Assembly: GCA_949128025.1 (NCBI GenBank)
Contig: CASBRD010000251.1
Span: 1-42,711 of the forward strand
Origin: Oscillatoriales cyanobacterium PMM_0008
Lineage (GTDB): Bacteria > Cyanobacteriota > Cyanobacteriia > Cyanobacteriales > Aerosakkonemataceae
Direction of reading: 5' to 3'
DNA: 42,711 nt
Shown here: piece after piece, positions 2,550-30,360 of the stretch
Numbering within the stretch: the stretch's first letter is position 1
Layout of the letters: each line of letters starts with the position of its first letter
The notes under the pieces: generated by a model
Databases searched by the model: none
Seen by the model: only the letters and a program-made list of their open reading frames with translations
What the model was told of the DNA's origin: nothing
Made by a program: the position numbers and the translations under genes

Positions 2550-2554
2550 TTCTA

Positions 2555-2679
2555 CTGCGTGTCCTCATCCGGGAAGCTTACATACTGGATAACGGTTGCA
2601 AAACCGAAGTAGGTTCGATTCCTACAACCTCCGCCAAAATTTGGAGGTTAATAAAAAAGCTTTTCAAACTTGCACGCAG
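2555..2679 (+). ncRNA. DS1: display-stem RNA with permuted tRNA-like payload
   Basis: P1 is CTGCGTG (2555-2561) paired with CACGCAG (2673-2679). P2 is GGGAAGC paired with GCTTTTC. The conserved TACATAC follows P2, and AACTTG precedes the P1 3' strand. The payload is a circularly permuted tRNA piece: an anticodon-like hairpin with GCA, a T-arm GTAGG-TTCGATT-CCTAC, then AACCTCC-GCCA, a 6-base linker, and the 5' acceptor strand GGAGGTT at 2643-2649. The acceptor stem is therefore closed as a hairpin with a 10-base loop that still contains GCCA. No D-arm is present; a GGATAA remnant suggests the stem is grafted at the D-arm. Confidence 0.75.
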
Positions 2680-2693
2680 TTGAAATCCACTAC

Positions 2694-5102: not shown

Positions 5103-5206
5103 TTATTCCAATACTTTTTGATCAAGGAGGTGTGTTAAATTCACTTACTAATTTTTACTAAATTGGATGCGTTCGCTCTTCGTGCCGTAGGCATATCGCA
5201 TTTTAC

Positions 5207-5416
5207 AGCGTGCCCTAACTTCCGAGAGCTTACATACTTTAGTACGAGAGGAAAAGTAACACTGTCAAAAAGCAGTGGGCGTGTGCAAACGGGGAGTGCA
5301 AAGAACCCGATAGGTGGGCTTGGAGGTAGCCATCCTTTAAAGAGTGTGTAACAACTCATCGGCGGAGTCCCTCTAGTAGCTGAGAAAACGCAAAATGCTC
5401 TGGTAACTTGCACGCT
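5207..5416 (+). ncRNA. DS2: display-stem RNA carrying 23S SRL and GTPase-centre mimics
   Basis: P1 is AGCGTGC (5207-5213) with GCACGCT (5410-5416). P2 is AGAGC with GCTCT. The constant CCCTAAC, TACATAC and AACTTG are present. The payload starts with AGTACGAGAGGA (5241-5252), identical to the sarcin-ricin loop core of 23S rRNA with its GAGA tetraloop. At 5306-5363 is a close match to the L11-binding domain (23S helices 42-44): CCGAT closing with ATCGG, GGCTTGGAGGTAGCC (5317-5331), TTTAAAGAG and GTGTAA. The order (SRL then GTPase-associated domain) is the reverse of that in 23S rRNA, so this is not a simple rRNA fragment. A second version is DS9. Confidence 0.85.
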
Positions 5417-5456
5417 ATTTTATCCTAAAGTGCGAACGCATTCAAAACACAAAAAT

Positions 5457-5972: not shown

Positions 5973-6230
5973 GGGGAGGTCGCCTAAATTGGAATGGCAC
6001 CGTAGAAACTAGGGAAACGGTTCTCAAAAGGACGACTGGGTTTGCCGAGTAGGGTAAAAAGTTGCTTCGCGACGTTCCCTGAAACCGCAAACGGGCAACG
6101 GGTTGCGGAGGCACTGAAAGGAATTAATAGTCCGAGATGGGGGTAGTTCCCATCTGCCTACAGGTAGTAAGAAAGCGCGTTTCCTAAAAGTTGCTGTCGG
6201 TCGATGCGGGTTCGAGTCCCGTCCTCTCCA
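5973..6230 (+). tRNA. tRNA with ~200-nt intervening sequence
   Basis: Acceptor GGGGAGG (5973-5979) pairs with CCTCTCC (6223-6229). The D-arm GCC/GGC follows, and GCGGG-TTCGAGT-CCCGT forms the T-arm. The halves ACCG and CGGT of an anticodon stem are separated by about 190 bases. The insert has group-I-like traits: GGACGACT matching AATAGTCC in a possible P7, then a P9-like hairpin GATGGG/CCCATC. The P3-P6 core is too short for me to fit. Anticodon not assigned. Confidence 0.5.
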
Positions 6231-8079: not shown

Positions 8080-8089
8080 TTTATTCCAG

Positions 8090-8138
8090 GTATGTTGTTG
8101 CGCTTGGGCGCTAAAGGGGCTAAAGCCCAACAACATAC
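8090..8138. repeat. palindromic repeat, GTTGTTG family copy 1
   Basis: GTATGTTGTTG at one end and CAACAACATAC at the other, with a CGCTT...AAAGC-like centre. The same ends occur at 10582-10647. Confidence 0.7.
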
Positions 8139-9659: not shown

Positions 9660-9896
<237 letters not shown>

Positions 9897-9904
9897 CAAC
9901 AGGC

Positions 9905-10056
9905 TGTTCCGCACCCTGACATCAAAAGCTCTACACACATTTAGGTCTAGCTCCGAAAGGATTGTGGGTTCGATTCCCACTAAAGACTACGGTCTTTATG
10001 GCGGAATGGTAAACGCACTAGAAGTTGTTAAAAGCTTTTCTAACTTGTGCGGAACA
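9905..10056 (+). ncRNA. DS3: permuted Leu-type tRNA on a display stem
   Basis: P1 is a perfect 10-bp stem, TGTTCCGCAC (9905-9914) with GTGCGGAACA (10047-10056). P2 is AAAAGC/GCTTTT. CCCTGAC and AACTTG are conserved. The payload begins with the 3' half of a Leu(UAG)-type tRNA (TTAGGTCTAG, variable arm, T-arm GTGGG/CCCAC, TAAAGAC), then UACG, then the 5' half (GTCTTTA, D-arm GCGGAATGG, CACTAGA). C(UACG)G is a stable UNCG tetraloop capping the acceptor stem, so no mature 3' end can exist. The stem replaces the anticodon loop. Confidence 0.82.
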
Positions 10057-10127
10057 ACATTTTAAAATTTGTGATTTTGAATTCAACAATTAATTCAAAA
10101 CTCAAAACTCAAAACTTTTCTTCTATG

Positions 10128-10268
10128 CCGCACCCTAACGAACGAAGCGTACATACATCTGGTCTACGTAACCGGAGGTTGTAGGTTCGACTCCTACCAG
10201 CTGCACCAAATGCGGCTGTAGCTCAACGGATAGAGCGCTAATGTCAAACGCTTTATTGACTTGTGCGG
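10128..10268 (+). ncRNA. DS4: permuted Arg-type tRNA on a display stem
   Basis: P1 CCGCAC/GTGCGG; P2 AAGCG/CGCTT; CCCTAAC, TACATAC and GACTTG conserved. The payload is a hairpin CTGGT-CTACGTA-ACCGG (anticodon ACG), T-arm GTAGG/CCTAC, CAGCTGC with ACCA, then GCGGCTG and the D-arm GCTC/GAGC. The acceptor stem is a hairpin with a 7-base loop. The anticodon arm and T-arm precede the D-arm, so the stem is grafted between D-arm and anticodon arm. Confidence 0.8.
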
Positions 10269-10295
10269 GGTAGATGAATTGGTAGTAAAAAGTTT

Positions 10296-10421
10296 CACTT
10301 CGCGCCCTGATTTAGGAAGCTTACATACTAGCTCATTGGTAGAGCAATCGACTCTTAATCGATCTGTAGCGGGTTCAAATCCCGCGTATAAACAAACAGC
10401 TTTCTTGACTTGCGCGAGGTG
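10296..10421 (+). ncRNA. DS5: Lys(CUU) tRNA-like domain on a display stem
   Basis: P1 is 10 bp, CACTTCGCGC with GCGCGAGGTG; P2 GGAAGC/GCTTTC; TACATAC and GACTTG conserved. The payload is an unpermuted class I tRNA body (D-arm GCTC/GAGC, loop CTCTTAA, T-arm GCGGG/CCCGC) closed by only a 4-bp acceptor, ATAC/GTAT, whose 5' strand is the constant TACATAC. There is no CCA end; the domain continues into AACAAACAGC. This resembles the tRNA-like domain of bacterial Y RNAs (YrlA). Confidence 0.8.
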
Positions 10422-10473
10422 ACTTTAACTACCATAACTATGTTTATTCTGGCTTTTTGCCATTATGTTTTCT

Positions 10474-10539
10474 GTTCCGCGCCCTAATGGACAAAGCATA
10501 CACACATCCAGTGCCTAGCTTTGGCGACTTGCGCGGAAC
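10474..10539 (+). ncRNA. DS6: minimal display stem
   Basis: Perfect 9-bp P1 GTTCCGCGC/GCGCGGAAC, CCCTAAT, P2 CAAAGC/GCTTTG, GACTTG. Between the P2 strands only about 20 bases remain (ATACACACATCCAGTGCCTA). An element without a tRNA or rRNA payload. Confidence 0.7.
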
Positions 10540-10581
10540 TTAATATTTCCCAAAATCACTTGTGCGAAGCAATGGAATTAG

Positions 10582-10647
10582 GTACGTTGTTGCGCTTTAG
10601 CGCTCTTATCCCAGTTGTAATAAGAGCGCTAAAGCGCAACAACATAC
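10582..10647. repeat. palindromic repeat, GTTGTTG family copy 2
   Basis: A near-perfect inverted repeat, GTACGTTGTTGCGCTTTAGC... against ...AAAGCGCAACAACATAC. A lone DS-type 3' motif (ACTTGCGCGG) follows at 10670-10679 without a matching 5' strand, so the repeat may have landed in a former DS element. Confidence 0.7.
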
Positions 10648-10720
10648 CCAGAAAGCAAGTAACTAACAACTTGCGCGGGGTGTTTTTAATCATAACCAAT
10701 CTGAAGAAAAGGAGGAGAAA

Positions 10721-11540
<820 letters not shown>

Positions 11541-11608: not shown

Positions 11609-11735
11609 CACTTCGCGCCCTAACTGAGAAAGCTTACATACTAGCCGAACGGTACAGGCGCTTGATTAAAGCTCAGGATAATGCGGGTTCAAATCCTGCG
11701 TATGAACAAACAGCTTTCTCAACTTGCGCGGAGTG
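11609..11735 (+). ncRNA. DS7: tRNA-like domain (AAA loop) on a display stem
   Basis: P1 is 10 bp, CACTTCGCGC with GCGCGGAGTG; P2 is a perfect 8 bp, GAGAAAGC/GCTTTCTC; CCCTAAC, TACATAC and AACTTG conserved. The payload is tRNA-like with D-arm GCC/GGC, a CTTGA-TTAAAGC-TCAGG anticodon arm, T-arm GCGGG/CCTGC and a 5-bp acceptor CATAC/GTATG. The 3' linker AACAAACAGC is shared with DS5. Anticodon position reads AAA, which is not a normal bacterial tRNA anticodon. Confidence 0.8.
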
Positions 11736-11775
11736 TTAATTTTTCCAATTTATTTATTGTTTGCCGGAGGTAGCT

Positions 11776-12162
11776 ATGTCTGCCAAAACTATGGTAATTC
11801 TGGAAGAGTTAAAATCACTGACAATGCTCGAAACTTCGGAACTGGTTAAGCAGATTGAGGCTACCTTCGGTGTTGATGCTTCAGTTCGCGAACCTATTAT
11901 CATTAAACCAAATAAAAAGGATGATGATGAAGGGGATAAACCAGTACAAACTGAGTTTGATGTGGTGCTGGAAGAAGTTCCGGCCGATCGGAAAATTGCC
12001 GTTCTTAAAATGGTACGGACTATCACAGGTTTGGGTTTGAAGGAAGCGAAAGATTTTGTTGAGTCAACACCGCAAGTTGTAAAATTTGCGATCGCACTTG
12101 ACGACGCCCAGGATATCAAACAGCAGTTAGAATCAGTCGGTGCAAAGGTTTCTGTCAGGTAA
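11776..12162 (+). CDS. ribosomal protein L7/L12 paralog, 128 aa
   Basis: ATG at 11776 chosen over the TTG at 11761 because GCCGGAGG lies just upstream. The N-terminal dimer domain (LEELKSLTMLETSELVKQI, FGVDAS) and C-terminal domain (EFDVVLEEVPADRKIAVLKM, TGLGLKEAKDFVES, GAKVSVR) are both L7/L12. The usual Ala/Gly hinge is replaced by a short charged linker with KKDDDEGDK. Residues that contact translational GTPases in L7/L12 (K-I-A-V-L-K, R, GLGLKEAK) are kept. It is not in an rplJ-rplL operon; it sits among DS RNAs that mimic the ribosomal GTPase centre. Likely a stress-time stalk protein or a partner of those RNAs. Confidence 0.88.
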   Translation: MSAKTMVILEELKSLTMLETSELVKQIEATFGVDASVREPIIIKPNKKDDDEGDKPVQTEFDVVLEEVPADRKIAVLKMVRTITGLGLKEAKDFVESTPQVVKFAIALDDAQDIKQQLESVGAKVSVR

Positions 12163-12631: not shown

Positions 12632-12651
12632 TTTCATTTTGGCAGTTATCG

Positions 12652-12719
12652 CCGCGCCCTAACTTGGAAAGCTTACATACCCTTTTACGGTAAACCGAAA
12701 GCTTTCCGAACTTGTGCGG
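12652..12719 (+). ncRNA. DS8: minimal display stem
   Basis: P1 CCGCGC/GTGCGG, CCCTAAC, perfect P2 GGAAAGC/GCTTTCC, TACATAC, GAACTTG. The top is a tiny hairpin ACGG-TAAA-CCG. It lies in the leader of the Ro-like gene. Confidence 0.75.
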
Positions 12720-12730
12720 TTTTTAATTAA

Positions 12731-14218
<1,488 letters not shown>

Positions 14219-15808: not shown

Positions 15809-15961
15809 ATGAACGATTTACAAGCAGTTTATAAAGCGATCGCACTAGAAGTGCAACAGCAACTTGCCAAACAATATCCAAATCAAAAACCTATTCGCAA
15901 GCGCATTCGGATCAATAATCGGAAGGACAAAAAACCTGAAATAATTCATGAGCATTTTTAA
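15809..15961 (+). CDS. 50-aa basic protein coupled to the RNA ligase
   Basis: MNDLQAVYKAIALEVQQQLA, then a strongly basic stretch IRKRIRINNRKDKK. GGAGGTGGTG gives a good ribosome binding site. Its 3' end overlaps the RNA ligase start by 14 bases in another frame, so the ligase is likely translated by coupling. The basic tail would suit RNA binding; no family recognised. Confidence 0.6.
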   Translation: MNDLQAVYKAIALEVQQQLAKQYPNQKPIRKRIRINNRKDKKPEIIHEHF

Positions 15962-16940
15962 AGTAGAAGTAGTCAAAATCAACAACGTCAATCCTCACAG
16001 CAATGCTGATAGATTGGACATAGCTACTATCGAAGGAATGGCATATCAGGTAATCACCGCCAAGGGTAATTTAAAAACGGGAGATTTGGCTTTCTACTTT
16101 CCTATTGATAGCGTTATTCACGATCGGTTTCTAGACGAATTCGGTATTCGTCCTTACTATTCCAAGAAACTGCGGGCGGCAAAACTGCGAGGCATTTTTT
16201 CTGAGGGTTTACTTATTCCCGTCGGCGATAACTTTGCAGGTAATGTGGGGGATGATTACACGGAATTCTTCGGTGTTACCAAGTACGAATACCCGATACC
16301 GCAGACGATGAATGGGGATGTGGAAACTGCGATCGGGCCATACAAATTTCCCAGTCCTGAAAACCTGAAGCGATATCGAGATGTTCTCTCTTATGGAGAA
16401 GAAGTAGTCGTAACCGAAAAAATTCACGGTACGAACTTTAGCGTCTTGGTAGATGCTGATGGAACAACCCACTTAGGCAGTCACAATTACTTTTGGAAGA
16501 ATAACGAGAATAACAAAACTCTCGTTTATGTTCGGGCTTACAACGAGTATCCTGTACTGCATAAGTTGCCTCAAAATACTCAAATATTTGGAGAAATTTA
16601 CGGAGTGCAGGATATTAAGTATGGCTTGAATAATGGCAAAATTGGAATTGCCTTTTTCGCCGTAAAGCAAAACGGCAACTTCTTGAACTACGCTGAATTT
16701 AACGCTTTTTGCGATGATTATTCATTGCCGAAAGTGCCTGTCCTTTATACTGGCCCTTACAGTTGGTCAGCGGTGTCTCAGTTTAACAATGCTGATAGCA
16801 CAGTCAATCCTGATTGCATCATGGAAGGCGTTGTGGTACAACCGCTGGTGGAACGCACAGATCCAGAAATCGGTCGGGTGGTGCTGAAGCTAATTAGCGA
16901 TCGCTACCTGCTTCGCAAAGACGGTACAGAACTCCATTAG
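15948..16940 (+). CDS. RNA ligase, DRB0094/Rnl5 family
   Basis: 330 aa, close to the 342-aa Deinococcus enzyme. The N-terminal domain (ADRLDIATIEG, FYFPIDSVI, AKLRGIFSEGLLIP) is the OB-like module specific to this family. Nucleotidyltransferase motifs follow: I, EKIHGTN with the lysine nucleophile near residue 158; III, IFGEIYGVQDIKYG; IV, MEGVVVQP; V, VVLKLISDRYL. These enzymes adenylate and seal 3'-OH/5'-P nicks, preferring duplex or bridged RNA. With KptA downstream it suits repair of cleaved tRNA or rRNA. Translational coupling to the 50-aa gene is likely. Confidence 0.9.
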   Translation: MSIFKVEVVKINNVNPHSNADRLDIATIEGMAYQVITAKGNLKTGDLAFYFPIDSVIHDRFLDEFGIRPYYSKKLRAAKLRGIFSEGLLIPVGDNFAGNVGDDYTEFFGVTKYEYPIPQTMNGDVETAIGPYKFPSPENLKRYRDVLSYGEEVVVTEKIHGTNFSVLVDADGTTHLGSHNYFWKNNENNKTLVYVRAYNEYPVLHKLPQNTQIFGEIYGVQDIKYGLNNGKIGIAFFAVKQNGNFLNYAEFNAFCDDYSLPKVPVLYTGPYSWSAVSQFNNADSTVNPDCIMEGVVVQPLVERTDPEIGRVVLKLISDRYLLRKDGTELH

Positions 16941-17241: not shown

Positions 17242-17487
17242 ATGAACTGGAAAATACTTTCTCTAGCCGCTGGTCTGGTTCTGGCTACCAGCCTCACCGC
17301 TTGCTCCAATAAATCCGCTACCGAAAATCAAGTCTCTCCAACTGCCGTCCCCGCTAGCAACAGCAAACCGGCTGACGCGATGAAGAAAGACGATGCCACG
17401 AAACCGGCTGACGCGATGAAGAAAGACGATGCCACGAAACCGGCTGACGCGATGAAGAAAGACGATGCCACGAAGAAGTCCCAGTAG
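17242..17487 (+). CDS. small repeat-containing lipoprotein, 81 aa
   Basis: AGGAG precedes the ATG. Lipoprotein signal peptide MNWKILSLAAGLVLATS ending in lipobox LTAC (Cys about residue 21). The mature part is an unstructured linker with three near-perfect copies of KPADAMKKDDAT, encoded by 36-bp direct repeats. Predicted to be anchored in a membrane with a flexible charged tail. Similar low-complexity lipoproteins occur in cyanobacteria without known function. Confidence 0.75.
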   Translation: MNWKILSLAAGLVLATSLTACSNKSATENQVSPTAVPASNSKPADAMKKDDATKPADAMKKDDATKPADAMKKDDATKKSQ

Positions 17488-17846: not shown

Positions 17847-18083
17847 ACTTGCGTGTCCTAACACCTGGAGCATACATACTTCAGTACGAGAGGAACGGTA
17901 ATCGTGGCATCGCCTTTGAGCGGTGTAGCGATCGCGTAGCTTACGATGTATTAGCATTGAGGAAATCGCTGAGAACCTGGAAGGTGGGCTTGGAGGTAGC
18001 CATCCTTTAAAGAGTGTGTAAAAACTTACCAGTGGAGGGATTTCTAAAGGCGATCGTTTTGCTCTAGAAACTTACACGCAAGT
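17847..18083 (+). ncRNA. DS9: second SRL + GTPase-centre display-stem RNA
   Basis: P1 is a perfect 10-bp stem ACTTGCGTGT (17847-17856) with ACACGCAAGT (18074-18083). P2 GGAGC/GCTCT; TCCTAAC and TACATAC conserved; the 3' motif is AACTTA. AGTACGAGAGGA at 17883-17894 is the SRL core. 17975-18032 matches the L11-binding domain, with GGCTTGGAGGTAGCC and TTTAAAGAGTGTGTAA identical to DS2 while its closing stem changed together on both sides (CTGG/CCAG against CCGA/TCGG). A HIP1-type repeat (GTAGCGATCGCGTAG) sits between the two modules. It ends 16 bases before kptA. Confidence 0.85.
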
Positions 18084-18099: not shown

Positions 18100-18645
18100 A
18101 TGAACGATTCTCGCTTAGTTAAAATCAGCAAATATCTTAGTTACCATCTTCGGCATCATCCTGATAAGATAGGTTTAGAACTTGCCGAAGGAGGCTGGGT
18201 TTCTGTAAATGAACTCCTAGCCGCGTGTAAAAAAGATCGCTTTTCCATCTCTCGCGACGAATTGAATCAAGTAGTCGAAAGCAACGACAAAAAACGCTTT
18301 TCCTTCGATTCCACAGGCTCACTAATTCGCGCTAATCAAGGGCATAGTGTAGAAATTGACTTGCAGTTGTCACCCACTCTTCCGCCAGATGTGTTATACC
18401 ACGGTACAGGACACCGTGCAGTCGAGTCCATTCTGCAAAACGGTCTAAACAAAATGTCACGACACCACGTCCATCTATCGATAGATATTGCCACAGCGAA
18501 CGCAGTAGGCAAACGGCATGGTAAACCAGTGGTTTTTGCTGTAGATGCTCAAGCAATGCACCGGGATGGTTATAAATTTTACTGTTCCGATAATGGGGTT
18601 TGGTTAGTCGATCGCATTCCCCCCGACTATCTTAAGCAGATATAA
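18100..18645 (+). CDS. kptA: RNA 2'-phosphotransferase (Tpt1/KptA)
   Basis: 181 aa, normal length. N-terminal winged-helix part KISKYLSYHLRHHPDKIGLE, GGWVSVNELL; C-terminal ADP-ribosyltransferase-like part VLYHGTGHRAVESI, RHHVHLSIDIATA and VVFAVDAQAM. Conserved LRH, HGT and RxHVHLS motifs are present. The enzyme transfers an internal 2'-phosphate from spliced or repaired RNA to NAD+. That need arises when ends with 2',3'-cyclic phosphate or 2'-phosphate are sealed, so it complements the RNA ligase nearby. It follows DS9 directly. Confidence 0.92.
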   Translation: MNDSRLVKISKYLSYHLRHHPDKIGLELAEGGWVSVNELLAACKKDRFSISRDELNQVVESNDKKRFSFDSTGSLIRANQGHSVEIDLQLSPTLPPDVLYHGTGHRAVESILQNGLNKMSRHHVHLSIDIATANAVGKRHGKPVVFAVDAQAMHRDGYKFYCSDNGVWLVDRIPPDYLKQI

Positions 18646-20509: not shown

Positions 20510-21352
20510 GTGGTGGCAGATATTCGTAAACTCCTTAACCAAATAGCTGCACAGGAAACGCGGCTGCGCGACACTCAATTCCTCGCACCGTGCGTGCGTG
20601 GGGGGTTAGTAAGAACGAGAGTTTCCCATATAATTTATAATTTTGCACCAAAGCCGCGCAATTTTGAAGGATGGGGTATTTTTCAAGCAGTGAATGAAAA
20701 AACTGCTGAGGTAATTGATGAACCAAGTTTGCCGCAACTGGCGGAATATTTGAAATTGCTTCAGCCGTTGCGTCTGCGGTTAGCTTATGTTTTGAAAGGG
20801 AAAACTTGGCTAGCTTATCCCATCAACGAATCTGATGCTAAACAACGCTTTGGTATTGCTAAACCTGTAGCGGTGAATTTGGTTACTGATGCTGCAACTT
20901 TTGAGCCGATAATTGCGCGTTGGGATGGCGGTTCCTGGTGGTTTGATGAGTGCGATCGCAGATCCGATCCGCTAGTAGCCGAACAACTCAAAGATGCGCT
21001 GAAAAAGGTGACCTCACCGCCAGAATTGCGCTTCAAAGGCATAACGCCTGAGATGGGTACTGTCTACGATTTGGTGGCACACCAGACGAAAGAGTTTGAA
21101 GCCAAAATGCAGCACAAACGGGATGAAAAACGCTTGGCGGCTGCATTGCGGCAAGGTGGTGGCGAGTTGCGGGAGTTTCGCGATCGCGACGATAGTTGGC
21201 TAATCGAGTGGATAACTGCCGATGGATCTCGCCACACTTCTGCTATTTCTAAAAATGACCTAACAGTTGTTAGTGCTGGTATTTGTCTCAGCGGAATGGA
21301 CAGAGATTTTGATTTGCAATCCCTAGTTGGTGTTGTTGAGAGGCAATTTTAA
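20510..21352 (+). CDS. protein of unknown function, 280 aa
   Basis: GTG start after AGAGGTAA. N-terminal part has a possible single cysteine at residue 28 in FLAPCVRGGLVRTRV, then hydrophobic strands (LRLAYVLKGKTWLAYP). The middle has a WDGGSWWFDECDR pattern, and the C-terminal part is a basic helix (HKRDEKRLAAALRQGGGELR) followed by strand-rich sequence. No family recognised. Position between an AAA+ ATPase and an E1-like protein makes an E2-like or adaptor role thinkable, but no motif proves it. Confidence 0.6.
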   Translation: MVADIRKLLNQIAAQETRLRDTQFLAPCVRGGLVRTRVSHIIYNFAPKPRNFEGWGIFQAVNEKTAEVIDEPSLPQLAEYLKLLQPLRLRLAYVLKGKTWLAYPINESDAKQRFGIAKPVAVNLVTDAATFEPIIARWDGGSWWFDECDRRSDPLVAEQLKDALKKVTSPPELRFKGITPEMGTVYDLVAHQTKEFEAKMQHKRDEKRLAAALRQGGGELREFRDRDDSWLIEWITADGSRHTSAISKNDLTVVSAGICLSGMDRDFDLQSLVGVVERQF

Positions 21353-21354
21353 CC

Positions 21355-21400
21355 GCAGATGAATACAGATGAACGCAGATAAACGCAGATATGCGGACGC
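21355..21400. repeat. ACAGATGAACGCAGAT tandem repeat
   Basis: Imperfect tandem CGCAGATGAATACAGAT units, a simple repeat common in cyanobacterial intergenic DNA; a related unit occurs at 8155-8172. Confidence 0.55.
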
Positions 21401-21469
21401 GAATTTTTTAGGCAACCGATGTGTAAGGAGATGTTATAAAAAGTTCTGTAAATTAAGGATATTTAATAA

Positions 21470-22105
21470 ATGAGTATTTTCTTTCACGAACAACGTTATC
21501 GCACGTCTGAAGTAATGGCACGGATGCGCGAGTTTGCAGTAACTGTCTGTGGTGCGGGTGCTTTGGGTGCAAATATCACCGAAAGTCTGGCCCGATCGGG
21601 CCTTGCTAAGCTGAAGGTAATCGATCGCGATCGCATCGAGGAACGCAACCTCTCCACCCAACCTTACTATCGTTCAGATATCGGTGCTTTTAAAGCCAAA
21701 ATATTGGCTAATTCGCTCTACCGTGCCTTGGGAGTGAATCTAGAGGCACAATCTAAAGAGTTGATCGCCACTAATGCAGGGCAATTGCTTGGCAGCACAT
21801 CTTTAGTTATCGATACTTTTGATAACAGCGTCGCACGCCAAGCGGTGAAAGATTACTGCGAAAGTGCAAATCTGCCTTGTCTTCATGTTGGATTAGGCGG
21901 AGATTATGGCGAGGTAATTTGGAATCAGGTTTATCGCGTTCCGTCTCCTGCAAACGATGATGTCTGCGACTACCCCCTCGCACGCAATCTAGTAATGCTA
22001 ACAGTTGCTGTCGCCTGTGAAGTTATTGTTACTTTTGTTGCCACAGGCAAGCAGCAGAGTTTTACAGTAACATTGGGAGATTTAGCGGTGAAGCCATTCG
22101 CCTAA
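21470..22105 (+). CDS. E1/ThiF-like adenylating enzyme, 211 aa
   Basis: Rossmann-type adenylation domain: VTVCGAGALGANITESLARS (GxGxxG, about residues 24-31), KVIDRDRIEERNLSTQPY (the D-x-D and R residues of E1/ThiF/MoeB), then IDTFDNSVARQAV (the D-N pair). The C-terminus is short, with VCDYPL possibly carrying a catalytic cysteine; no zinc-binding CxxC pair of MoeB/ThiF is visible. E1-like enzymes activate the C-terminal glycine of ubiquitin-like proteins. The 66-aa protein at 9696, which ends in Gly, is the only candidate substrate in the window. Confidence 0.78.
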   Translation: MSIFFHEQRYRTSEVMARMREFAVTVCGAGALGANITESLARSGLAKLKVIDRDRIEERNLSTQPYYRSDIGAFKAKILANSLYRALGVNLEAQSKELIATNAGQLLGSTSLVIDTFDNSVARQAVKDYCESANLPCLHVGLGGDYGEVIWNQVYRVPSPANDDVCDYPLARNLVMLTVAVACEVIVTFVATGKQQSFTVTLGDLAVKPFA

Positions 22106-29999: not shown

Positions 30000-30360
30000 T
30001 TTGCCCCTGTCGTTTAGCCTGACGACCTGTAAACAACCCACCGAAGGATCGGAGTACCGATAGAGCGGGGGCTTTGAAAGAAGCCCAGAGTTTACCAGAC
30101 TTTGGTAGCAATACCTACGTTAGAAGCAAGAGTTAAAGTTCTTACCAAGGAATGCGTAGCTAGTTCCCTGCTCTAAAACCTAAAGGTTAAACAGGTCTAA
30201 AAATAAGGGTTAAGCCAGTGCCTTTGGGATAGTACCGACTTCTAACATTGTCAAAGCTAACATTACCTGAGAAATCAGAGAGGGAGTAATCCCAAACTAA
30301 ACGCCCAATCGTTAGCGAAGCGGCTCCTAGACGGATCTGGGGGTCATTCAAGCACAATCT
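30000..30360. other. structured intergenic region upstream of the HtrA gene
   Basis: No ORF. A series of short stem-loops is visible: GTCGT/ACGAC at about 30010, ATCGG-AGTA-CCGAT at about 30050, GGGCTT/AAGCCC, and TACCA/TGGTA at about 30095. This density suits a structured RNA (an untranslated leader or independent ncRNA), or the RNA end of a lost IS605/IS607-type element. I cannot match it to a known family. Confidence 0.35.

What the first reader, a model, noticed from the sequence alone, without database searches (positions are those of the whole stretch)
9905..10056. Permuted Leu-type tRNA whose acceptor stem is sealed by a UACG tetraloop
The 3' half precedes the 5' half and the two acceptor strands are joined by C(UACG)G, an UNCG tetraloop. 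RNase P and CCA addition cannot make an aminoacylatable tRNA from this. The anticodon loop position is replaced by the P2/P1 scaffold. This is not like archaeal permuted tRNAs, which are processed to normal ends.
Basis: partly seen in the sequence, partly recalled or inferred. Interest (0 to 1): 0.9.

Follow-up and report, generated by a model that had tools for sequence, protein, structure and literature searches.

The report
Ro-linked RNAs copying tRNA and rRNA
The capped, rearranged tRNA is one of a whole array of small RNAs beside a hidden relative of the human Ro60 protein in filamentous cyanobacteria, and many of these RNAs carry a copy of a different vulnerable piece of the protein-making machinery.

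Summary
At 9905-10058 a tRNA-Leu-type body is permuted: T arm, acceptor stem TAAAGAC/GTCTTTA capped by UACG, then D arm. Two scaffold helices replace the anticodon arm. The element is not isolated: the window holds nine RNAs on one scaffold (P1 ..GCRCCCTAA / ACTTGYGC.., P2, ACATAC) around a gene (12785-14218) whose predicted structure is Ro60 (Z 22.5; best non-Ro row 13.8). In 60 related genomes the scaffold pattern occurs in 26 of 27 with this gene and 0 of 33 without. In 80 named loci the finder gave 314 copies with the core motif (78 loci), all on the gene's strand. Most helices covary. The architecture is that of YrlA Y RNAs, but Rfam's YrlA and Pfam's TROVE thresholds are not reached. New here is the repertoire: permuted tRNAs with capped acceptor, unpermuted tRNA bodies with a near-constant pseudo-acceptor and a hypervariable anticodon, 23S sarcin-ricin loop plus GTPase-centre pieces, and a 23S 1927-1960 piece. 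I read it as a divergent Ro/Y-RNA system displaying parts of the translation apparatus: most likely decoys or baits for RNA-damaging enzymes, otherwise adaptors to Ro. Expression, binding and function were not tested.

The parts
9905..10058 (+). E1: the finding; permuted Leu-type tRNA module, acceptor capped by UACG, on the P1/P2 scaffold
10124..10274 (+). E2: second permuted tRNA module; acceptor CAGCTGC/GCGGCTG closed by ACCAAAT; sub-threshold YrlA match 30.9 bits (gathering 69)
10296..10423 (+). E3: unpermuted tRNA body (anticodon CUU) whose acceptor is the scaffold helix CATAC/GTATA; called tRNA-Lys by ARAGORN
10473..10542 (+). E4: short scaffold RNA without a recognised module
11609..11737 (+). 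E6: unpermuted tRNA body (anticodon read as AAA) on the scaffold; called tRNA-Phe by ARAGORN
12648..12725 (+). E7: short scaffold RNA about 60 nt upstream of the Ro-like start codon; likely in its 5' leader
12785..14218 (+). Ro60-fold protein, 477 aa: helical-repeat N-terminus plus vWA domain with DKSGSM; not recognised by Pfam TROVE
2554..2680 (+). scaffold RNA inside the tRNA array: anticodon arm, T arm and capped acceptor, no D arm
   Evidence: helices read by eye
5204..5421 (+). scaffold RNA with 23S sarcin-ricin loop (TAGTACGAGAGGA) and GTPase-associated-centre piece
17848..18083 (+). second sarcin-ricin plus GTPase-centre scaffold RNA; large-subunit match at 17962-18044 (50.4 bits; not listed by the cmscan runs)
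   Evidence: P1 read by eye
11776..12162 (+). second copy of ribosomal protein L7/L12; found in 30 of 80 relative loci
9696..9896 (+). 66-aa conserved ORF just upstream of E1; found in 66 of 80 relative loci; no family match
15948..16940 (+). RNA ligase of the DRB0094 type (TIGR02306); found in only 3 of 80 relative loci
18100..18645 (+). Tpt1/KptA RNA 2'-phosphotransferase; found in 7 of 80 relative loci

Best explanation
E1 is a Y-RNA-like RNA of the YrlA type, one of an array that works with the Ro60-fold protein encoded at 12785-14218. The terminal stem P1 with its ACTTG motif is the probable Ro-binding handle. P2 and a junction present an interchangeable module. In E1 the module is a tRNA elbow plus a capped acceptor stem, so a tRNA surface is shown that cannot be charged or used in decoding. 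Sister RNAs show anticodon arms, the sarcin-ricin loop with the GTPase-associated centre, or the 23S 1927-1960 region. Most likely the set is made under translational stress and serves as decoys or baits held on Ro for enzymes that cut or modify tRNA and rRNA. Shown by computation: architecture, covariation, predicted Ro fold, co-occurrence, module types. Inferred: Ro binding, induction, decoy role. I give about 0.9 to the Ro/Y-RNA-like identity and about 0.45 to the decoy/bait role.
For: Ro60 fold: the first ten VIA-align rows are Ro/TROVE entries (best 1yvp_A Z 22.5, rmsd 4.0, 433 aligned); the first other row has Z 13.8 and covers the vWA part only; the first 13 Foldseek rows are Ro/TROVE. 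Co-occurrence: scaffold pattern in 26 of 27 Ro-positive and 0 of 33 Ro-negative genomes (Fisher p 4e-16, phylogeny not corrected). 314 copies with core in 78 of 80 loci, all on the gene's strand; of 19 further pairs without core, 16 are on that strand and 3 on the other. Reversed and shuffled sequence: 1 and 7 loose hits, 0 with core. Covariation: 20 of 38 pairs (unpermuted) and 21 of 33 (permuted) change on both sides, 0 of 500 shuffles. The YrlA consensus has the same topology and an AcUuG motif before the 3' strand of P1. Modules: large-subunit rRNA match of 50.4 bits; alignment to 23S scores 61 and 54 against shuffled maxima of 38 and 39 (200 mononucleotide shuffles each). Anticodon triplet: 33 of 124 sites differ against 257 of 5433 elsewhere in 43 independent pairs; the U33 column differs in 1 of 43. 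Published lead: YrlA proposed as a possible competitive inhibitor of an anticodon nuclease (PMC7790460, passages).
Against: No expression, binding or cleavage data. Rfam YrlA gathering score not met (17.5 and 30.9 against 69; 0 of 40 genomes); sub-threshold YrlA hits also occur in 7 of 14 control genomes, so they are weak evidence. Pfam TROVE found nothing in the genome. RNA ligase (3 of 80) and Tpt1 (7 of 80) are rarely found beside the gene, which weakens a general RNA-repair link. The pseudo-acceptor helix of the unpermuted class shows no two-sided change. Anticodon variability may be relaxed constraint. The sarcin-ricin RNA folds no better than shuffles by MFE (z -0.57, 42 of 200 as good). 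The 50.4-bit large-subunit match was not listed by cmscan.
Confidence: 0.6

Rival explanations
1. Adaptor repertoire: each module is a handle that recruits a different tRNA- or rRNA-binding protein (PNPase, elongation factors, modifying enzymes) to the Ro ring, as YrlA tethers PNPase to Rsr in the RYPER machine.
For: Published mechanism of the closest relative (PMC8394870, passages). A second L7/L12 gene lies beside the array, and the sarcin-ricin loop and GTPase-associated centre together form the factor-binding site of the ribosome (recalled; modules).
Against: Hypervariable anticodon triplets on a conserved loop frame are not expected of a fixed binding handle. Several different ways of mounting a tRNA are more than one adaptor needs.
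Confidence: 0.3
2. Permuted tRNA gene, as known from some archaea and algae (recalled), processed to a working tRNA.
For: The 3' half precedes the 5' half.
Against: There is no anticodon, and the place of the anticodon arm is taken by covarying P1/P2. The two acceptor strands are joined by 4 nt. Related RNAs carry rRNA fragments on the same scaffold.
Confidence: 0.01
3. Degenerate remnants of the neighbouring tRNA array, pseudogenes without function.
For: Two scaffold copies in the window are reduced to 3' ends (near 10558 and 10669), and small hairpins interrupt some T loops in relatives.
Against: Two-sided changes in each of the five helices of the permuted class; TACGAGAGG invariant in 18 copies; U33 column nearly unchanged between close pairs; co-occurrence with the Ro-like gene.
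Confidence: 0.03
4. The scaffold RNAs are mainly leader elements by which Ro regulates its own mRNA and neighbouring genes, the modules being incidental.
For: The last scaffold lies 140 nt or less upstream of the Ro-like start in 57 of 78 loci, and there it is mostly a short form without a recognised module.
Against: Many other copies lie kilobases from the Ro-like start, and their modules are conserved and covary.
Confidence: 0.08

Closest known systems
YrlA bacterial Y RNAs (Rfam RF02553)
   Same: P1, P2, P3, then T arm, capped acceptor, D arm; ACTTG-like motif before the 3' strand of P1; beside a Ro60-fold gene
   Different: Below Rfam's threshold; several RNAs per locus; sister RNAs carry unpermuted tRNAs and 23S pieces, not described in the sources seen here
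Rsr / Ro60 (TROVE) proteins
   Same: Whole-length Ro60 fold with vWA domain, Z 19.6-22.5 for ten Ro/TROVE entries
   Different: 14-16% identity in those alignments; Pfam TROVE finds nothing in this genome
Salmonella rsr-yrlBA-rtcBA RNA repair operon
   Same: Ro protein and Y RNAs in a locus tied to tRNA damage (PMC7790460, passages)
   Different: No RtcA or RtcB among the 20 window ORFs scanned (not all 65 ORFs were scanned); the ligase here is of DRB0094 type and rarely conserved; a large tRNA array lies alongside
Anabaena trn operon (26 tRNAs, TrcR-repressed)
   Same: Large tRNA array in a cyanobacterium; TGTAGTAT sites lie upstream in the window (PMC10272220, passages)
   Different: The terms Y RNA, Ro60 and TROVE occur 0 times in that paper's main text; TrcR control of the present array is inferred
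Permuted tRNA genes of archaea and algae (recalled)
   Same: 3' half precedes 5' half
   Different: No anticodon, capped acceptor, not convertible to a tRNA

Membership tests
YrlA / bacterial Y RNA | Terminal stem plus tRNA-like module T arm, capped acceptor, D arm | tested here: met
YrlA / bacterial Y RNA | Encoded beside a Ro60/Rsr gene | tested here: met
   Ro60-fold gene at 12785-14218, shown by predicted structure only; co-occurrence
YrlA / bacterial Y RNA | Reaches the Rfam RF02553 gathering score (69 bits) | tested here: not met
   17.5 bits (E1) and 30.9 bits (E2); 0 of 40 genomes over cut-off. So not filed under RF02553; described as YrlA-like
YrlA / bacterial Y RNA | Bound by Ro through the terminal stem; module binds PNPase | not testable with these tools
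   needs binding assays
Ro60 / TROVE | Ro60 fold: helical-repeat ring plus vWA | tested here: met
   predicted model, pLDDT 83.4, pTM 0.76; Z 22.5
Ro60 / TROVE | Match to Pfam PF05731 | tested here: not met
   So described as Ro60-like, not as a TROVE family member
Ro60 / TROVE | Conserved metal-site (MIDAS) residues in vWA | tested here: met
   D300, S302, S304, T362, D386 invariant in 25 sequences; their assignment to MIDAS is recalled
Permuted tRNA gene | Contains an anticodon and yields a mature tRNA | tested here: not met
   no anticodon arm

The most novel reading that the evidence does not exclude
A bacterial bait panel: one Ro-type protein carries a set of RNAs, each displaying a replica of a different damage-prone site of the translation machinery (anticodon loops with fast-changing triplets, capped acceptor ends, sarcin-ricin loop with GTPase centre, 23S 1927-1960). 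Attack on a bait is absorbed or sensed, and the triplets diversify in an arms race with anticodon nucleases.
Probability: 0.35. Interest if true: 0.95.

Novelty: new variant of a known kind. Interest (0 to 1): 0.85.

Why it matters
Bacterial Y RNAs are known to mimic tRNA, but why is open. Here one protein family is paired with a whole set of RNAs that mimic tRNA in more than one mounting and two regions of 23S rRNA. That turns a question about a single mimic into a testable pattern. It also points to an overlooked Ro60-like branch in filamentous cyanobacteria and explains at least two doubtful tRNA gene calls.

Tried and rejected
Rejected: permuted tRNA gene (no anticodon); permuted tmRNA (22.7 bits against 47, on E2); chance (covariation and co-occurrence); pseudogene remnants. 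RAGATH-7 at 10589-10782 (31 bits against 111.8) is probably a chance match on a palindromic repeat. My note called E2 Arg-type; its best match among 30 window tRNAs is tRNA-Asn, so I dropped the label.

Led nowhere: DNA similarity in phages returned mostly annotated tRNAs among the 40 rows listed of 280 records; in plasmids the ten cyanobacterial rows listed have no annotated feature or no annotation. PADLOC gave only E1-E2 matches for the ThiF protein and TRIP13 and IetA matches for the AAA protein. The 3' half of the 23S 1927-1960 RNA has no convincing 23S counterpart (16S was not aligned there, but the blastn used the whole rRNA operon). The real 23S of this genome was not found in the assembly, so other cyanobacterial genomes served as reference.

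Papers: three papers I wanted on YrlA and on RNA repair systems are not held. Ten searches of an open-licence library listed no report of rRNA-bearing Y RNAs; this is judged from titles and abstract starts, and most specialist Y RNA papers are not in it.

Limits of counts: the scaffold finder was tuned by eye on window and relatives. Classes (138 unpermuted, 88 permuted, 66 short, 49 other, 22 sarcin-ricin plus GTPase centre, 21 23S 1927-1960, 10 another leader type; 394 unique sequences of 439) rest on regular expressions, and some genomes are present twice under different loci. A core filter dropped E1 itself and near orthologues (one extra base); E1 was added by hand to alignment A3. A2 and A3 hold 26 and 27 elements, chosen below 90% similarity (E1 apart). 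One search kept 80 of 202 relatives. In one search, 18 of 138 unpermuted elements fitted no anticodon arm; the loop finders require or favour T at position 33, so the 124 of 136 count is biased upward. Of the 80 loci only 48 are longer than 19 kb, so neighbour counts are lower bounds.

Full report
What was checked. Reading 9905-10058 gives a T arm, a 7-bp acceptor stem closed by UACG and a D arm, in permuted order. Its fold energy is 3.2 standard deviations below shuffles, although the centroid fold keeps only P1 and the capped acceptor. The enclosing stem (P1) pairs TTCCGCAC with GTGCGGAA. Among 30 predicted tRNAs of the window the best match is tRNA-Leu(UAA).

It is one of a set. Repeats in the window share a 5' motif (CGCGCCCTAAC....AAAGCTTACATAC) and a 3' motif (ACTTGCGCGG). 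Nine P1-bounded RNAs lie in the window, starting at 2554, 5204, 9905, 10124, 10296, 10473, 11609, 12648 and 17848 (the first and last were bounded by eye). Two truncated 3' ends remain near 10558 and 10669, where relatives have intact RNAs.

The partner protein. The gene at 12785-14218 matched no Pfam family above cut-off, and the Pfam TROVE model found nothing in the genome. Its best PDB sequence match is a TROVE protein at E 0.23, 0.07 with a profile. An AlphaFold model from 25 sequences (pLDDT 83.4, pTM 0.76) matches Ro60 over nearly its whole length: the first 13 Foldseek rows are Ro or TROVE entries, and VIA-align gives Z 22.5 over 433 residues for 1yvp, with the first other family at 13.8. 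So a Ro60-like gene was hidden by divergence.

Association. The protein occurs in 27 of 60 genomes, the window's own included. The scaffold's 5' pattern occurs in 26 of the same 60, and the backward pattern in none. Comparing the two lists, 26 of 27 Ro-positive genomes have the pattern and 0 of 33 others (test; relatedness not corrected). The exception, G037, has a diverged copy (L054). In 80 named cyanobacterial loci, the best 80 of 202, a finder that asks for both motifs, P1 pairing and the core gave 314 copies in 78 loci, all on the gene's strand; 19 more pairs lacked the core, 3 of them on the other strand. Reversed and shuffled sequence gave 1 and 7 loose hits and none with the core. In 194 genomes spread over the phylum, 18 had a protein match; two of these were weak (E about 1e-4) and cover only part of the vWA region.

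Structure. In 26 unpermuted elements 95.0% of cells pair and 20 of 38 pairs change on both sides; in 27 permuted elements, 95.5% and 21 of 33. No shuffle of 500 reached any measure, and slid pairings fell to 33-50%. One helix of the unpermuted class, the pseudo-acceptor, is nearly invariant and so has no two-sided change. The Rfam YrlA consensus shows the same order of helices and an AcUuG motif at the same place. Rfam's threshold is not met, and sub-threshold hits occur in 7 of 14 control genomes, so the case rests on architecture, partner and motif, not on that score.

The modules. Of 394 unique elements, 138 were classed as unpermuted tRNA bodies, 88 permuted, 22 sarcin-ricin plus GTPase centre, 21 with 23S 1927-1960, 66 short, 10 a leader type and 49 other (E1 and near orthologues were lost to a filter). 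A further mounting, with anticodon arm, T arm and capped acceptor but no full D arm, is seen at 2554-2680 and in relatives. In unpermuted bodies the acceptor is the scaffold's own helix: ACATAC on the 5' side in 131 of 138 and GTATR near the 3' side in 92 of 138. Position 33 is T in 124 of 136, a count biased by the finder. Position 34 is the most variable column of the alignment (0.63 against a mean of 0.145 in 998 pairs). In 43 independent pairs at least 90% identical, the triplet differs at 33 of 124 sites, all other sites at 257 of 5433, and the U33 column in 1 of 43. Triplets include CTA, TTA and ATT, which do not suit decoding (recalled).

The rRNA modules. In the whole-genome search the Rfam large-subunit model matches 17962-18044 at 50.4 bits (cut-off 50) and 5307-5362 at 46.9. 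The cmscan runs list only the second or neither (gathering threshold). Both RNAs carry AGTACGAGAGGA; TACGAGAGG is invariant in 18 aligned copies. The other type matches 23S at about 1927-1960 in 30 of 33 positions in the three copies aligned. In one search blastn of all inserts against two rRNA operons gave such hits down to E 7.5e-9, and shuffled inserts gave none. Numbering is approximate, by anchor.

How it may work. The handle is P1, the cargo is the module. For YrlA it is published that the stem binds Rsr and the tRNA-like part binds PNPase (PMC8394870, passages), and that the module might inhibit an anticodon nuclease (PMC7790460, passages). The copied sites here include anticodon loops and the sarcin-ricin loop, classic targets of RNA-cutting toxins (recalled). 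The locus shares the window with a large tRNA array. Such an array is repressed by TrcR and switched on by translational stress in Anabaena (PMC10272220, passages), and TGTAGTAT occurs at 1414, 1599, 1611 and 8227, where shuffles give 0.71 on average. I therefore favour decoy or bait, with adaptor as the main rival. The last scaffold sits within 140 nt of the Ro-like start in 57 of 78 loci, which suggests autoregulation.

What speaks against. No RNA or binding data exist here. Repair enzymes are rarely found beside the gene (ligase 3, Tpt1 7 of 80 loci), whereas a 66-aa ORF (66), a 280-aa ORF (47), a ThiF protein (46) and L7/L12 (30) are more common; only 48 of the 80 loci are longer than 19 kb. 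The sarcin-ricin RNA does not fold better than shuffles by energy alone. Variable triplets may reflect loss of constraint.

Verdict. The element is YrlA-like; the array of interchangeable tRNA and rRNA replicas around a hidden Ro60-like gene is not reported in the listings of the ten searches named under Tried and rejected.

Noticed in passing
window 11776-12162: A second ribosomal L7/L12 gene (the other copy is on contig C404), found beside the array in 30 of 80 relative loci.
   Followed up: partly
window 1414, 1599, 1611, 8227: TGTAGTAT, the TrcR-like site of the Anabaena trn promoter, four times where shuffles give 0.71; upstream of the tRNA array and of the acetyltransferase gene.
   Followed up: partly
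L103, L118, L128, L132, L138, L142 and others: Small hairpins (of the kind GTACCCTNCGGGAANGC...GCGAACAA) interrupt T loops of scaffold tRNAs; they look like small dispersed repeats of cyanobacteria (recalled).
   Followed up: no
window 10580-10647 and 8088-8138: Two related palindromic repeats; the first sits where two scaffold RNAs are truncated relative to relatives.
   Followed up: partly
window 10322-10393 and 11635-11707: ARAGORN calls tRNA-Lys and tRNA-Phe here; both are modules of scaffold RNAs with a non-tRNA acceptor, so the calls are probably not functional tRNA genes.
   Followed up: yes
window 20510-22105: A 280-aa ORF without family match and a ThiF/E1-like protein lie downstream of the Ro-like gene in 33 of 48 full-length relative loci each.
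   Followed up: partly
window 30029-30266: HEARO RNA (130.4 bits) upstream of a 400-aa ORF, probably an IscB-type element (recalled; the ORF was not searched).
   Followed up: no
window 5988-6230: A tRNA-like 5' part and a T arm about 200 nt apart, possibly a tRNA interrupted by an intron; read by eye only.
   Followed up: no
window 17365-17474: Three copies of a 38-nt direct repeat with 36-bp spacing in a small ORF.
   Followed up: no
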